Source: a virus. Taken from it: a DNA stretch of 57,305 bases. Below are positions 1 through 57,305 of the stretch, one piece after another. The notes beneath the pieces are model-generated. The model did no database searches. It was not told the origin of the DNA and was given only the letters and a program-made list of their open reading frames with translations. The translations under genes were made by a program, and so were the position numbers. Positions within the stretch are counted from its first letter, which is position 1, and the number at the start of each line of letters is the position of its first letter. Location of the stretch: IMG/VR virus record IMGVR_UViG_3300035182_000325, positions 1 through 57,305 of that record, one strand, 5' to 3'.

Positions 1-91
1 ACATTTTGAGATGAGCATCATCGATTTGGACTTCAAACATTTTGAAGTAGTGTTCTGGCCTCTTTTCAATATCTCCTGCTACTCTCTCCAA
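1..91. repeat. terminal direct repeat (left copy), circular closure
   Basis: These 91 bases are identical to 57215-57305. The minus-strand nuclease gene reads in frame across the join, so the repeat most likely marks a circularly closed assembly of a circular or circularly permuted genome. A genuine 91-bp packaged terminal repeat is possible but less likely, because the junction falls inside a coding sequence. Confidence 0.9.
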
Positions 92-10823: not shown

Positions 10824-12752
10824 TTAGGCAAATTCGGCTGATCGTCCAGAAGTTTCAATTACAATACCGTTGCTTTCAGCAGTTCCTTTAAGTGCATACT
10901 CATTATCCCAAGTCGCCATGTAAATGGGAATTTGGTCCGACACACATAAAAGATTGCATGACCAGCTGCTTTCTCCGATTCGATAACAATCTCTATTATT
11001 AATCTGAGAAATGACTGGACACGGAATTTCGTAACCAATTCGTATAGCGTATCCTTTTGACCGCACTGTGTAAATAGGCTTTCCACGAACATGAATGATA
11101 TCGTTGTTGTATGGGGTTTGGTCTGCTGCTGCTGAAGCCCCATTAATACCAAACCCAACTGAGGATTTTGAAGAGGTTTCTAAGGAAGAGGCTTTTCGAC
11201 TATTCAGGAACTGACTAGTAATGGTAGGCAGTATTCCTGAATTTGTAAACTCTTTTATCAAGAACCAAGGGACGTATTCAATCCATGAGTTTTCTGGAGT
11301 AATCCCATCCAGGTACTCACCGTAAGCAGAAACGTCATATGATCCTTTACCTAAGGGCATTGTGTCCCGCTCATAACTATCTGTTCTATAAGGTCTAACG
11401 GGTTCTCCAGGAGTATTCTGACTTTGATAAGAAGATTGACGGGAATTTGACAACGAAGATTGGTCAGCAGTACATAGATCGAAGAGTAGACTGAATGTTG
11501 GTAGAGAAGGATTACGAAATCCGGTACTACCCTGAACCCCACCAATGTTAGTTTTCCACAATGACCATTGATCAGCCCGAGAAAATGGATTAGCAGTATT
11601 GAGGTTATCAGGAACTCTTCCATCTTCTACAGCACTCCAAGCCACATCTACGGGATAGAACATCCCTGTTGACTTAAATAGATTCAAAATAGAAGTATAA
11701 GTAACCCATCGCATGTTTACAGAAACCTTGCGAGAGTTGCAAGATTCCTTGATTCGTATGCTTAAAGGAATTTGCTTTGGTAGTTCCTTCTTTTTATCGT
11801 TCGGTTCTTTGTTATCCTTTAGGAACTGATCTATTGGGGCTGCAAAGAAATTAGATCGATTACGACGATTAGCCATGTAGATAGCGAAAGCTACCCAGGC
11901 CCATCCCTTCCATTCTCCAGGCTTAACCGTGAACTCACCACTCATATCATTAGCCCAAGTTCTAAATCCTGAACCTTCAAATATATTATCTGAAAGCAGA
12001 TTAGAACTAATAGAATGGGAAACTTCTTGAGATACGATGTAACGATAGAACGGATTCTCTGAAGCAATTTCCGTGTCAGTTATTTGATAGTCAAGAGTAC
12101 GTTGATCTCTTCGAACAGTAATCCTACTTGTACGTTGGAAGTTAAGAAGTTGGTTTTTATCGAAGTACGCAGCAAATATCTTAAGAGCGTTAGGAGTTAG
12201 GAGTCCTCTTTTTCCGGATTGACCAGCAACTTCAATGGAACCTGAAGTAGTAATTACAGCAGCACCTTCTTCATTAAAAGCTATCTCTGTCTCTTCGATT
12301 AATGAGAGGATCGTTAATTGTGCTGCTGAAGCTACAGTTAGATCGGCTGGAATAGGGCAGGCTGTTGTAGTAGCTTCTAGTCTCCAAGTTACCTCAGCAG
12401 CAAGATTACCGCCTAAGGTTTTCCATTCAAGGATTTCAGGAATAGGTCCATAGTTGATATCAGTGTAGGTACTGCCCGGACCATTTAATGAAATTACGTT
12501 ACCAAACCCTCTACCTTCAAAATGGAACTCTAACCCTTTGGTAAGTAGCTGTCCTTTAATAAGATCGAATTCATCATCAGTACCGCTAGGATTAGCTAAG
12601 ATGAACTTAACTTCAAACGTAGTCTTGTAGTACTTAATCGTAATCCCATCGTCTGCACGAACAGGTACTACTTTAGCATCAGTATGAATCGAGTAATTAG
12701 CAAAGCTGAATAAACCATAGCTAACCGGCATGAAGGACGAACAATCGATCAT
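10824..12752 (-). CDS. tail structural protein, 642 aa
   Basis: A large, mostly beta-rich protein without recognised catalytic motifs. The start overlaps the tape-measure-like gene stop (ATGA, 12749-12752). The N-terminal third (FSFANYSIHTDAKVVPVRAD, VKFILANPSGTDDEFDLIKG) resembles jelly-roll-like distal-tail or tail-tube-adjacent proteins. The middle has basic runs (NRRNRSNFF, KKKELPKQIP). Position between tape measure and chaperone genes supports a structural tail role such as distal tail or baseplate. The precise part is not determined. Confidence 0.5.
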   Translation of the reverse strand: MIDCSSFMPVSYGLFSFANYSIHTDAKVVPVRADDGITIKYYKTTFEVKFILANPSGTDDEFDLIKGQLLTKGLEFHFEGRGFGNVISLNGPGSTYTDINYGPIPEILEWKTLGGNLAAEVTWRLEATTTACPIPADLTVASAAQLTILSLIEETEIAFNEEGAAVITTSGSIEVAGQSGKRGLLTPNALKIFAAYFDKNQLLNFQRTSRITVRRDQRTLDYQITDTEIASENPFYRYIVSQEVSHSISSNLLSDNIFEGSGFRTWANDMSGEFTVKPGEWKGWAWVAFAIYMANRRNRSNFFAAPIDQFLKDNKEPNDKKKELPKQIPLSIRIKESCNSRKVSVNMRWVTYTSILNLFKSTGMFYPVDVAWSAVEDGRVPDNLNTANPFSRADQWSLWKTNIGGVQGSTGFRNPSLPTFSLLFDLCTADQSSLSNSRQSSYQSQNTPGEPVRPYRTDSYERDTMPLGKGSYDVSAYGEYLDGITPENSWIEYVPWFLIKEFTNSGILPTITSQFLNSRKASSLETSSKSSVGFGINGASAAADQTPYNNDIIHVRGKPIYTVRSKGYAIRIGYEIPCPVISQINNRDCYRIGESSWSCNLLCVSDQIPIYMATWDNEYALKGTAESNGIVIETSGRSAEFA

Positions 12753-27777: not shown

Positions 27778-30234
27778 CTAGATATACGGTTTGTAAATAC
27801 TTGGAGGATCGGTGTAATACCCAGGCGAGTTATCTGGTAGTGTCTGCGTATAGTCTATTTCCATTTGCATAACTGGATCAAGTCCAGCACCTTGAGAGGA
27901 AACATAATTACAAGCATCAGATAGTGTATCTACAATATCATCAGGAACTCCAGGGTGACCAGTCCAAGAGAAGACTTCATCCATACAGGTTTGGAGCCAA
28001 GGAGCATCTTCAGGGAACCAAATCCTACGCTTCTTCATACGATAGATCGCACTAGCAGCATTCTGAATCTTATCCTTACTCTTCTTGTGATCCATGATTG
28101 GAACACCTCTAGAAGCAAGAATCTGAGCAGGACCAATCCCTAATCCGTTAGCTTCGACTAGCACATATTTAGGTTTGAAGGTTTTATTAATCCGAATGAC
28201 TTGCTCAATCAGATAAGGAATCTCTTCTCTGAACCTCATCATGTGAAGCCATACCAACTGATAGTCTGGAGTCAAACCCCATACAGAGATAACAGTATAC
28301 GAAGGACCTTTCTTCTTATTAGTCACTTCGTCAATGGGTCCTTCCATAGTCGATGCTGCTGGATCAACAGTAACGAATACTTCTAAGAAGTCCTCCAACT
28401 TAATGACATACGGACCTAGTTGGAAGTAGTCTCCTCTAGAAGTGTAGAACTTAGCATGTAGAGAGTTGAATCTACTATCAGGAGAGATGTCCCAGTCACC
28501 ATAGAGTAGTTGTTGCTTACGAATCTCATCCAATCGATCGAGACTAGAAGCATATCCCCTTTGATCGATGAACTCATTATCAGCTAGTGTAGAAGGGATA
28601 AAGGGCATGTGAGGGTATCGTCCTACCCATTTAACTCTTTTCTCTCCTACTTCATCGGTGTATATCTCTTTGTGGATACCATATCTAGTTTTGATCCAGT
28701 GGTGTCCAGGTCCTCCAGGATTTCCAGCCATACGGAATCTAAGAGGTAACCCTTCATACATTGAGCATACTTTGCATCCTTTAACGTAGTTAGGTATTTT
28801 TTCTCCAGTATCAGGACATTTCTTTAACCTATGTTTAGGACATACGTTTTTTCTTAATCGAGAAAAGAGATAAGTTGGCGCAGAATCATTTTCAAAGTGA
28901 GAAGCTTCATCAATACCACAATTGGCATTGACAAGACCACACATTGTGATATAGTGTGAACTGTCTTCAACGGTTATATCACAAACATCAAAGGTTCCAG
29001 GCAATGACAAAAGGTATGAAGTGGAAACATCCAGGTGACAAGCGTTGGTTTTCTCGACCAGGATATCCTGATTCGTATATGGGTGGATATACGAAGCTGA
29101 ACAGGCAAGGTTATGTTCTTGAATACCATCCACACATTTCAACGAATGCTGCAAAGATGGTATCACAACATCGTTTAGTTTGGTTGGACGTTCATTCTGT
29201 TCTTCCTGAGGGGTACGATGTTCATCATAAGAACGAAATAAAAACGGATAACCGGATTGATAACTTAGAGTTGAAGACAAAATCGGATCATGGAAAGCAT
29301 CATATAAAGAACAATCCGATCTATCGAGTGTGTACTTTGACTTCAAAGGAAGTGAAAAAAGCACTGAAGGGGCGGACAACTTTGAAAGCGGCTGAACTAC
29401 TCGGAGTACATCATCAAACTTTGAGGAATCACTTTGACCATCTTCTAGATAAGAGAAAAGTACCTTCTTCAGATACTCCTGAGATTCAAAAGATAATTCG
29501 GAAGTACGCGAAAGACCCTGATAAGACCTTTCGAGACCTTCACAAGGATCATGGAATAGTGGCAAGGTTTGCTTGCAAGATTCTAAAGAAGTACTCGATT
29601 CCTTGGTTTTATCGACGGCCTTGGGGAGAGGTTGTGTCAAAAACCTATGATTGACTCCTTGAATCTGAAGTCCGTATCTTGTGACAGCTAGAACACACTC
29701 TTTATTAAGTTTATGTGTTTTAGTTACTCGTTTTGGACCGTTCAAAGTCCAAACCATATCACCAACTTCAATAAGACCAATCTTCTTGTAAGACTTATCA
29801 TCCATTAAAACTGGGGTCTCCGGAACACAACAGAACTGATATTCAGCACCTTGGTATCTAGTTTCAGCTTGATACTCCCCCAGATAGCCAAATTGAATTT
29901 TAGCGGGGTGTCCCGGTGATCCATTTGGCCAAAAGGTAGGAAACGAATAAGTATGGTTTTGACTATCATACTTAGCCGAAGTACCGCTGAACCATTGATG
30001 AGCCTTATCAAGCAGAGCTTTAGGTTGAGTCAATTCAACTAAAGTTCTTCGAAGAATAAGGGCCGCATACCCAGGCACATCAACGTACTGAGTAGCAGCC
30101 ATTAGAAGAACTTCAGACTTACCTCCTCCAGCAGCACCACCAAAGAAGGCTTCCAAGTGAGGAAGTAACAGGAATGCTAATTGAGTGGCATAAGGTTCCG
30201 TTGGAATGTATTCGCGATTCCATTTTATGTGCAT
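27778..30234 (-). CDS. terL: terminase large subunit interrupted by an intein, 818 aa precursor
   Basis: The ATPase has Walker A GGAAGGGKSEV (residues 32-42), Walker B CGIDEASHFE (439-448) and the coupling motif MAGNPGGPGHHW (502-513). The RNase H-like nuclease has Asp in VTVDPAAST (near 624), VLVEANGLG (near 694) and PDDIVDTLSDA (near 766). The enzyme cuts concatemers and pumps DNA into the prohead. Residues 136-438 are an intein placed exactly before Walker B, in a conserved site as inteins usually are. Ligated exteins give about 515 aa, normal for TerL. The gene starts in a TAATG overlap with the RuvC-like gene. Confidence 0.9.
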   Translation of the reverse strand: MHIKWNREYIPTEPYATQLAFLLLPHLEAFFGGAAGGGKSEVLLMAATQYVDVPGYAALILRRTLVELTQPKALLDKAHQWFSGTSAKYDSQNHTYSFPTFWPNGSPGHPAKIQFGYLGEYQAETRYQGAEYQFCCVPETPVLMDDKSYKKIGLIEVGDMVWTLNGPKRVTKTHKLNKECVLAVTRYGLQIQGVNHRFLTQPLPKAVDKTKESSTSLESCKQTLPLFHDPCEGLERSYQGLSRTSELSFESQEYLKKVLFSYLEDGQSDSSKFDDVLRVVQPLSKLSAPSVLFSLPLKSKYTLDRSDCSLYDAFHDPILSSTLSYQSGYPFLFRSYDEHRTPQEEQNERPTKLNDVVIPSLQHSLKCVDGIQEHNLACSASYIHPYTNQDILVEKTNACHLDVSTSYLLSLPGTFDVCDITVEDSSHYITMCGLVNANCGIDEASHFENDSAPTYLFSRLRKNVCPKHRLKKCPDTGEKIPNYVKGCKVCSMYEGLPLRFRMAGNPGGPGHHWIKTRYGIHKEIYTDEVGEKRVKWVGRYPHMPFIPSTLADNEFIDQRGYASSLDRLDEIRKQQLLYGDWDISPDSRFNSLHAKFYTSRGDYFQLGPYVIKLEDFLEVFVTVDPAASTMEGPIDEVTNKKKGPSYTVISVWGLTPDYQLVWLHMMRFREEIPYLIEQVIRINKTFKPKYVLVEANGLGIGPAQILASRGVPIMDHKKSKDKIQNAASAIYRMKKRRIWFPEDAPWLQTCMDEVFSWTGHPGVPDDIVDTLSDACNYVSSQGAGLDPVMQMEIDYTQTLPDNSPGYYTDPPSIYKPYI
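28928..28955 (+). promoter_or_regulatory. sigma70-like promoter for the antisense endonuclease
   Basis: TTGACA (28928-28933), a 16-base spacer and TATAGT (28950-28955) lie on the plus strand, within the DNA that encodes the intein's C-terminal splicing blocks. Transcription would begin near 28962, some 40 bases before the endonuclease ATG. AAAGG at 28990-28994 gives a ribosome site 9 bases before that ATG. Confidence 0.65.
29004..29654 (+). CDS. HNH homing endonuclease encoded antisense inside the intein
   Basis: The start is the ATG at 29004 (MTKGMKWKHPGDKRWF), preceded by AAAGG. The longer frame from a GTG at 28956 would begin at the promoter. The HNH domain reads SQHRLVW (H56), YDVHHKNEIKTDNRIDNLEL (H74/H75, N83/N87) and KSDHGKHH, the standard phage HNH arrangement. 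Residues 111-142 (LTSKEVKKALKGRTTLKAAE and following) look like a helix-turn-helix, and a second lies near 160-200. The 216-aa protein would cut intein-less terL alleles to promote homing. It is fully contained within the intein, opposite to the sense frame, with its own promoter. Confidence 0.85.
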   Translation: MTKGMKWKHPGDKRWFSRPGYPDSYMGGYTKLNRQGYVLEYHPHISTNAAKMVSQHRLVWLDVHSVLPEGYDVHHKNEIKTDNRIDNLELKTKSDHGKHHIKNNPIYRVCTLTSKEVKKALKGRTTLKAAELLGVHHQTLRNHFDHLLDKRKVPSSDTPEIQKIIRKYAKDPDKTFRDLHKDHGIVARFACKILKKYSIPWFYRRPWGEVVSKTYD

Positions 30235-33864: not shown

Positions 33865-34401
33865 TTACCTGGAAGGAGTATTCTTTCCTCTATATTTTCT
33901 AGCCCGAGCTTTGTTCTTATCGAAGTCTAACCATCGGCAATTAGAAGGGGTGTATCCTTTTTCAGGTTTAATTCTATCGATGGATTCATTAGGCTGAGGG
34001 AGGCCCATATCAGCTAAGAAGTTTACGAATGAAGTTCTCCATCGTTTACAGACAGTGATACCGAGTGCTCCATATCCTTTGTAACTTCTACACTTGGAGT
34101 TGTGGCAACGATGAACCATATCTCTCCACGCTGAATACACTTTAGTATTTGCGTAGCCGTGAAAGGTTAATTTGTTTCCAGGTTGGACTCCTCTTCGGTG
34201 TTCCTTAGCCAAACATCCACAAGATTGGGTAGCTCCAGATTTAAGGTTGTTTCGAATAACTGTTGCTTCCTTACCACAGTCACATTTACAGAGCCAGTAG
34301 AAATAGTTCTTTTTTGACTTACCACGCACTTCGGTATGAGACAGACGTAGGACGACCAAACGCCCGTAACGAATGCCAACAAGGTTAGTAACTGGTTTCA
34401 T
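33865..34401 (-). CDS. free-standing HNH-like homing endonuclease with zinc-binding N-terminus, 178 aa
   Basis: The N-terminus has the repeated-Cys DNA-binding element GIRYGRLVVLRL, WLCKCDCGKE and TQSCGC, typical of phage free-standing endonucleases. It is followed by the variant HNH region YSAWRDMVHRCHN, YGALGITVCKRW, DRIKPEKGYTPSNCRW. Such genes are mobile and often lie near conserved operons. It has its own promoter (34442-34470) and sits at the edge of a gene-free region. Confidence 0.8.
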   Translation of the reverse strand: MKPVTNLVGIRYGRLVVLRLSHTEVRGKSKKNYFYWLCKCDCGKEATVIRNNLKSGATQSCGCLAKEHRRGVQPGNKLTFHGYANTKVYSAWRDMVHRCHNSKCRSYKGYGALGITVCKRWRTSFVNFLADMGLPQPNESIDRIKPEKGYTPSNCRWLDFDKNKARARKYRGKNTPSR

Positions 34402-56981: not shown

Positions 56982-57305
56982 TTCGGGGAAAACATCGCAG
57001 TTAGGTTCTAGTCCTACGTCGATACCATTTACGACGCGATTGAAGTAGTCTCCTAGACCGTGAGACATTGGATCGTATATTCCGAACGGTCTTAGGTAAT
57101 GATGTGGATTTGGTTGACCGTCTACGCCTATCCACGGATCGAAAGGGTTTTGTTTTATTGACTCCCACCAAATGACGATCTGACAGAGCAGAGGGTAGAG
57201 GTATCGTTGCTCCCACATTTTGAGATGAGCATCATCGATTTGGACTTCAAACATTTTGAAGTAGTGTTCTGGCCTCTTTTCAATATCTCCTGCTACTCTC
57301 TCCAA
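56967..57305 (-). CDS. Cas4/RecB-like nuclease, C-terminal part (continues from base 1)
   Basis: This is the 3' end of the gene that begins at 796 and crosses the closure point. The overlap of 91 bases is duplicated here. The residues IVIWWESIKQNPFDPWIGVD and HYLRPFGIYDPMS are unremarkable C-terminal sequence. The stop at 56967 lies inside the promoter for the next operon. Confidence 0.75.
   Translation of the reverse strand: MERVAGDIEKRPEHYFKMFEVQIDDAHLKMWEQRYLYPLLCQIVIWWESIKQNPFDPWIGVDGQPNPHHYLRPFGIYDPMSHGLGDYFNRVVNGIDVGLEPNCDVFPELAEP
57215..57305. repeat. terminal direct repeat (right copy)
   Basis: Exact copy of bases 1-91, see the left copy. Confidence 0.9.

What the first reader, a model, noticed from the sequence alone, without database searches (positions are those of the whole stretch)
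28921..29829. Intein whose homing endonuclease is encoded on the opposite strand
Seen: the terL frame carries intein splicing blocks at both ends of a 303-residue insertion before Walker B. The middle 210 residues have no endonuclease motif. The plus strand of that same middle encodes a full HNH protein (29004-29654) with H-N-H residues and helix-turn-helix regions. Known: intein endonucleases normally lie in frame with the splicing domains. Antisense endonuclease genes are known in some group I introns. Inference: the gene invaded a mini-intein backwards and now shares DNA with a linker that must stay open, translatable and splicing-compatible. I know of no described intein with this layout. 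Both frames are stop-free over about 650 bases.
Basis: partly seen in the sequence, partly recalled or inferred. Interest (0 to 1): 0.95.

Follow-up and report, generated by a model that had tools for sequence, protein, structure and literature searches.

The report
Intein with backwards-coded homing endonuclease
A phage DNA-packaging gene carries a self-splicing protein insert (an intein) whose usual DNA-cutting partner gene is written on the opposite DNA strand of the same stretch, so one 650-base piece of DNA appears to be read as protein in both directions, a layout I could not find described for any intein.

Summary
Confirmed in sequence, with small corrections. The phage terL gene (27778-30234, minus strand) has a 304-residue intein at 29832-28921. 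It sits at the Walker B motif, where the closest relatives have none (AEYQF|C...N|CGIDE against AEFQF-V/A-AIDE). The intein N-part is secure (hhalign 95%, HMM E=1.3e-9). The C-blocks are correctly placed but statistically weak, and the penultimate His is replaced by Ala. Exactly where in-frame endonuclease domains normally sit, the plus strand encodes a complete HNH_3 + helix-turn-helix protein (29004-29654). It has a near-consensus extended -10 promoter of its own (28928-28955) inside the intein C-block coding. The terL frame opposite the HNH gene has no stop over about 215 codons. Expected by chance is 9-17, with P about 1.5e-8 (genome codon usage) or 5e-6 (HNH's own codon usage). So read-through of terL is very probably under selection. 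In-frame relatives of the same HNH domain occur in ordinary inteins (L003, L006-L009, L026-L028). None of 46 distinct HNH relatives has the antisense layout. Closest precedents are the same-strand out-of-frame ShiLan HNH insertion and antisense endonuclease genes in group I introns. Splicing and homing are inferred, not shown. This is one sequence with no close relative carrying the element.

The parts
27778..30234 (-). terL precursor ORF, 818 aa (large terminase subunit interrupted by intein)
   Evidence: PHROG 979/38 terminase large subunit; NCBIfam psiM2_ORF9 weak
29833..30234 (-). N-extein (Q-motif, intact Walker A FFGGAAGGGKS, up to AEYQF)
   Evidence: alignments
27778..28920 (-). C-extein starting C+1 GIDEASHF (Walker B DE) to nuclease domain
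   Evidence: alignments
28921..29832 (-). intein, 304 aa (Cys1 ... Asn304 | Cys+1)
29632..29832 (-). N-terminal splicing part, blocks A to B, intein residues 1-67
   Evidence: hhalign 95%, HMM E=1.3e-9
28921..28992 (-). C-terminal splicing blocks F and G (FDVCDITVEDSSHYITMCGLVNAN)
   Evidence: pattern and position; weak HMM score
29005..29649 (-). stop-free sense stretch opposite the HNH gene (215 codons, no Met; its first few codons are the end of block B): overprinted linker, no homologue found
29004..29654 (+). HNH endonuclease gene, 216 aa: HNH_3 core + two predicted helical HTH-like units; alternative start 29016
29169..29291 (+). HNH motif (HR..., VHHKNEIKTDNRIDNLEL...DH), HNH residues 56-96
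   Evidence: Pfam match residues 72-113 of the long ORF, invariant columns
28928..28955 (+). predicted sigma70 promoter TTGACA-16-TATAGT with extended -10 TG, inside the coding of intein block G/F
   Evidence: one of 5 sites of 11/12 or better in 57 kb on both strands and the only one with TG

Best explanation
It is a bipartite mobile element at the Walker B site of a phage terL gene: a cis-splicing intein plus a homing endonuclease gene encoded antisense inside it. Shown by sequence: intein N-part, empty site in relatives, intact HNH gene on the other strand, promoter-like site, and dual open frames beyond chance. Inferred: (1) terL is translated straight through, the 304-residue intein excises itself and joins AEYQF to CGIDE. 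(2) The HNH protein is made separately from its own plus-strand promoter, cleaves or nicks intein-less terL near the Walker B codons, and repair copies intein and gene together. (3) The sense-strand linker is an overprinted, hydrophilic loop at the place where in-frame endonuclease domains normally sit; its only duties are to stay stop-free and not to disturb splicing. (4) Opposite-strand coding with its own promoter would let the endonuclease be expressed at a different time from the late terL message.
For: Intein N-part homologous to TerL inteins of Caulobacter/Brevundimonas phages. The extein joins perfectly to the intein-free consensus of 80 TerL loci. HNH_3 E=3e-14, with the HNH residues intact. 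Sense frame stop-free at P 1.5e-8 / 5.3e-6, 0 of 5000 shuffles, 0 of 63 real-gene windows, and 0 of 46 HNH relatives open in that frame over 150 codons. Linker more hydrophilic (3% tail), fewer hydrophobic residues (1-3%), no Met. Promoter with 11 of 12 matches and extended -10 on the HNH strand, 49 bases upstream of its ATG. The same HNH (+HTH) domain is used in frame by ordinary inteins L003 (TerL-like) and L006-L009 (ribonucleotide reductase-like). No group I intron in the window, while the same search finds one in L034.
Against: Block F/G score is weak. The block B Thr position is Gly and the penultimate His is Ala. The ~25 residues after block B that complete the splicing fold in other inteins are not recognisable (one search stops at residue 67). 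The AlphaFold model of the precursor is uninformative (pLDDT 33). Only one instance is known, with no close relative for substitution-rate tests. The Shine-Dalgarno of the HNH gene is poor.
Confidence: 0.72

Rival explanations
1. The antisense HNH gene has wrecked the intein: terL is read through by chance, the intein no longer splices, and this genome is a defective or recently damaged copy.
For: Missing recognisable Hint segment after block B and weak C-blocks; His->Ala before the C-terminal Asn.
Against: Zero stops in 215 codons has P 1e-8 to 5e-6 and the linker composition is shifted towards soluble; exteins, Walker A and B are intact.
Confidence: 0.15
2. Same final layout but by inversion: an ordinary intein with an in-frame HNH-HTH domain suffered an inversion between block B and block F, and the inverted domain gained start, stop and promoter. 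(A rival for the origin only, not for the present function.)
For: The HNH gene lies exactly between block B and block F; relatives of this HNH domain are in-frame domains of inteins.
Against: The HNH protein also resembles free-standing phage HNH proteins equally well; no in-frame relative at this site was found.
Confidence: 0.25
3. Fractured gene: translation does not run through; TerL is made as two pieces that join by split-intein trans-splicing, with the HNH gene between them (as in the fractured genes of Dassa et al. 2009, from memory).
For: HNH gene between intein halves is the known fractured-gene plan.
Against: There is no stop after the N-half and the sense linker has no Met at all, fewer than expected, so there is neither an end nor an ATG start for two pieces; the open frame would be unexplained.
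Confidence: 0.04
4. ShiLan-type insertion: not an intein, the translated insert stays in the mature protein.
For: Out-of-frame HNH with open host frame is exactly what is described for ShiLan (PMC11855218).
Against: Here splicing blocks A-B are significant, Cys1, Asn and Cys+1 are present, and the insert is in the essential Walker B of TerL.
Confidence: 0.06
5. Group I intron carrying an antisense HNH gene, removed as RNA.
For: Antisense endonuclease genes are known in group I introns (PMC9548176), and another terL (L034) has a group I intron.
Against: No intron match in the window at gathering or relaxed threshold; intein blocks present; open frame unneeded for an intron.
Confidence: 0.01

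Closest known systems
Inteins with in-frame HNH endonuclease domain
   Same: Hint splicing blocks; HNH_3 domain homologous to ours (46% and 54% over the core), followed by HTH in L003/L006; same place between block B and block F
   Different: There the endonuclease is a domain of the intein in the same frame; here it is a separate gene on the opposite strand with its own start, stop and promoter-like site
[quoted passage not shown]
   Same: HNH gene in an alternative frame of an insertion that stays open in the host frame, in a phage gene
   Different: Same strand, no splicing domains, insert thought to be retained in the protein; here opposite strand and within a recognisable intein
Antisense HEGs in nuclear group I introns, e.g. 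Didymium squamulosum L2066 I-DsqI (PMC9548176)
   Same: Homing endonuclease gene antisense to its splicing host element, own promoter proposed
   Different: RNA intron, so the opposite strand need not be an open protein frame
Fractured genes / split inteins with an intervening endonuclease gene (Dassa et al. 2009, cited from memory)
   Same: Separate endonuclease gene between the two halves of an intein
   Different: There the host gene is broken into two translated pieces; here the frame is continuous
TerL inteins of Caulobacter phages (phiCbK, CcrMagneto, J4) and of Gordonia phage GMA6 / Brevibacterium phage Cantare
   Same: N-part sequence similarity (Caulobacter group, 36-42%) or same region of TerL (GMA6, Cantare, six residues upstream)
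   Different: Different insertion sites (Walker A; Q|SAEYQF); the Gordonia-type insert carries a LAGLIDADG-like domain in frame (by eye); no antisense HNH noted

Membership tests
Intein (cis-splicing) | In-frame insertion in a conserved motif, absent from relatives | tested here: met
Intein (cis-splicing) | N-terminal splicing blocks A-B with Cys/Ser/Ala1 and block B His | tested here: met
   Cys1 and block B His present, block B Thr replaced by Gly
Intein (cis-splicing) | Complete N-subdomain after block B (L..GD strand region) | tested here: inconclusive
   homology ends at residue 67
Intein (cis-splicing) | C-terminal blocks F/G ending Asn, followed by Cys/Ser/Thr | tested here: inconclusive
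   Asn and Cys+1 present, block F pattern present, weak HMM score, penultimate His is Ala
Intein (cis-splicing) | Self-excision with ligation of exteins | not testable with these tools
   needs expression
HNH homing endonuclease (HNH_3) | HNH core with catalytic His/Asn/His | tested here: met
HNH homing endonuclease (HNH_3) | DNA-binding module(s) | tested here: met
   HTH_23/HTH_20 below gathering, HTH matches in PDB profile search, predicted helices (moderate confidence)
HNH homing endonuclease (HNH_3) | Cleaves intein-less allele and promotes homing | not testable with these tools
   needs assay
Canonical full-length intein (endonuclease domain in frame) | Endonuclease domain in the same reading frame between blocks B and F | tested here: not met
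   no domain in sense middle; HNH on opposite strand
ShiLan-type hidden HNH insertion | Absence of splicing domains | tested here: not met
Group I intron with antisense HEG | Group I ribozyme | tested here: not met
   with positive control
Fractured gene with split intein | Host gene split into separately translated halves | tested here: not met
   continuous frame, no Met in linker

The most novel reading that the evidence does not exclude
A working intein whose homing endonuclease is a separately promoted gene on the opposite strand, with the sense-strand linker a de novo overprinted peptide held open by selection on the host protein. It would be a third way, besides in-frame fusion and split genes, for an intein to carry its endonuclease, and one that frees endonuclease timing from host-gene timing.
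Probability: 0.65. Interest if true: 0.85.

Novelty: new variant of a known kind. Interest (0 to 1): 0.77.

Why it matters
All intein endonucleases that I know of are in-frame domains at one conserved insertion site, and why that site is so conserved is debated (PMC6801210). An endonuclease at the same site but on the other strand would show that the site is used because the splicing fold tolerates any insert there, not because of a protein-protein arrangement. It gives a natural case of about 650 bases of antisense double coding in which one protein is catalytic and the other only has to be tolerated. It suggests how endonuclease expression can be uncoupled from that of the host gene. It also warns that HNH genes antisense to 'hypothetical' stretches of phage genes, and inteins called endonuclease-less, may be missed in annotation.

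Tried and rejected
No second copy: viral-contig scans with the intein N-part, with a junction pattern and with a Walker B intein pattern (its one hit, L217, is chance) found no intein at this site. The HNH scans gave only distant relatives, and the survey of their antisense strands found no intein layout (the long antisense ORFs in L004 and L147 carry no intein motifs and L190's is short). PDB sequence search with the intein N-part gave only chance hits. Single-sequence AlphaFold of the intein was useless, and Foldseek on the moderate HNH model gave nothing significant. MAFFT alignment of full inteins misplaced the N-blocks and was not used. Codon adaptation did not separate the two frames (0.756 against 0.758). 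Assembly error was considered and set aside: it would not produce a stop-free antisense frame. Group I intron rejected.

Full report
What is there. The window is a 57,305-base virus record whose ends share a 91-base direct repeat. Almost all of its long ORFs are on the minus strand. The terL gene runs 30234-27778 and encodes 818 residues without a stop. It belongs to the phrog_979/phrog_38 and psiM2-type terminases. Alignment with known TerL proteins shows one extra block, residues 135-438, between AEYQF and CGIDEASHF. Eighty TerL loci from viral contigs, four of them 55-58% identical to the window, read straight across this point (e.g. RYQGAEFQF-V-AIDEAGHFEND). Several distant relatives naturally have Cys at the +1 position (L057, L067, L093), so the required Cys+1 need not have been brought in. 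The insertion is 304 residues, window 28921-29832.

The splicing part. Residues 1-67 (CCVPETPVLMDDKSYKKIGLIEVGDMVWTLNG...GVNHRFLTQ) match TerL inteins of Caulobacter and Brevundimonas phages and a mini-intein profile made from them, gp41-1 (sequence from memory) and two inteins found here (hhalign probability 95%). An HMM of such N-parts gives E=1.3e-9, the only significant hit in all six frames of the window. The C-end FDVCDITVEDSSHYITMCGLVNAN|C carries the block F pattern, terminal Asn and Cys+1, but scores weakly (E 0.17 for the piece). Its strength is position: it ends exactly where the extein resumes. Two usual residues are changed (block B Thr to Gly, penultimate His to Ala). The stretch that normally follows block B (L..GD...) is not recognisable. 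That stretch is opposite the end of the HNH gene, and it is the main weakness of the splicing claim.

The endonuclease gene. On the plus strand, 29004-29654 encodes 216 residues with HNH_3 (E=3e-14), an HTH and matches to many phage HNH families. The histidines and asparagines of the core are invariant against relatives. AlphaFold with a four-sequence alignment gives a beta-beta-alpha core and two helical bundles at moderate confidence. Upstream, TTGACA-16-TATAGT with TG before the -10 lies at 28928-28955, 49 bases before the ATG, inside the coding of intein blocks G and F. Only five sites this good exist in the window on both strands, and this is the only one with the extended -10. The first in-frame GTG at 28956 would precede the likely transcript start, so 29004 (or 29016) is the likely start. 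The gene fills the interval between block B and block F, the place where inteins carry endonuclease domains.

Is the double frame more than chance. Reading the terL frame across the HNH gene meets no stop, whereas the four frames that are neither HNH nor terL contain 10-17 each. Keeping the HNH protein fixed and drawing synonymous codons with the phage's own usage gives P=1.5e-8 for zero stops. Using the HNH gene's own codons, which are already biased by any avoidance and so conservative, gives 5.3e-6. None of 5000 shuffles and none of 63 windows of real phage genes reach zero; the lowest is 10 in the real genes. There are 34 codon pairs at which a synonymous choice could create a stop, and all avoid it. 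In 46 HNH relatives the same antisense frame is never open over 150 codons. Conditional on no stops, the sense linker is also more hydrophilic, less hydrophobic and free of Met compared with recodings (one-sided tails of about 1-6%); this is suggestive only, since several properties were looked at. The linker itself has no homologue among the loci held. I conclude that the terL reading of this DNA is used, and that the linker is overprinted on an older HNH gene.

How it most likely works. Shown: anatomy, empty site, double coding beyond chance, promoter-like site. Inferred from known biology: TerL is needed by the phage, so the precursor must be translated through and spliced. The HNH protein is made from its own promoter and targets the intein-less site. 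Repair moves intein and gene together. Antisense coding with a sigma70-type promoter would allow expression before the late terL message, something an in-frame domain cannot do.

Origin. Two routes fit. A free-standing HNH gene may have inserted backwards into a mini-intein, or an in-frame HNH-HTH domain may have been inverted. The second is made thinkable by L003 (a TerL-like intein) and L006-L009 (ribonucleotide reductase-like), whose in-frame HNH(-HTH) domains are homologous to this gene.

Comparison. Known neighbours are in-frame HNH inteins, the same-strand out-of-frame HNH 'ShiLan domain' without splicing blocks (PMC11855218), antisense endonuclease genes in group I introns (PMC9548176) and fractured genes with split inteins (from memory). 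It fails the defining feature of each of the last three: it has splicing blocks, no ribozyme (the same search finds a group I intron in L034), and an unbroken frame. Literature searches for intein with antisense, opposite strand, reverse strand, complementary strand, out-of-frame or overlapping frame found no intein like it. A 2025 preprint on non-canonical intein architecture (cited in PMC11855218) is not held and could contain one. I rate it a new variant of a known kind.

Side observation of note. In the four closest relatives and one further contig (L052, L053, L054, L064, L216) terL is interrupted inside Walker A: GGAAGGG, then GTT and a stop, a GC-rich hairpin, and after 61 or 64 nucleotides GGT/GGC AAA TCA (GKS) in another frame. 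The hairpin is stable (about -33 kcal/mol, z about -3). A +1 frameshift would run into a stop in L064 and L216, leaving translational bypassing of the T4 gene 60 type, or an RNA-level removal, as the likely reading. No relative was found among 50,697 phage records. It is not part of the window, whose Walker A is intact.

Noticed in passing
L052:4001-4200, L053:4001-4200, L054:2991-3190, L064:4001-4205, L216 (reverse strand, around 11313-11342): terL of the closest relatives is interrupted inside Walker A (GGAAGGG|KS) by 61 or 64 nt with an immediate stop codon, a stable conserved hairpin, and matching Gly codons on both sides (GGC take-off, GGT/GGC landing): looks like T4 gene 60-type translational bypassing. 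The frameshift alternative meets a stop in L064 and L216; no match among 50,697 phage records. Deserves its own investigation.
   Followed up: partly
L034:3636-4621: terL P-loop (FYGG|AAGGGKS) split by a group I intron (Rfam RF00028, E=7.5e-18) with a GIY-YIG-like ORF.
   Followed up: partly
L071, L128, L129 (upstream of 4001, 3461, 4001): In-frame LAGLIDADG-type inteins (by eye) in the TerL P-loop (GGGK|...HN|SD), so the same Walker A codons host inteins, an intron and the bypass-like gap in different phages.
   Followed up: no
L038:545-2851, L039:370-2850: Brevibacterium phage Cantare and Gordonia phage GMA6 TerL carry inteins at Q|SAEYQF, six residues upstream of the window's intein site; annotated simply as terminase.
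   Followed up: no
window 1-91 and 57215-57305: 91-base direct terminal repeat: the record is probably a complete (circularly closed or terminally redundant) genome.
   Followed up: no
window 33865-34401 (-): 178-aa ORF with zinc-ribbon-like CxCG motifs that resembles free-standing phage homing endonucleases by eye; no Pfam match.
   Followed up: no
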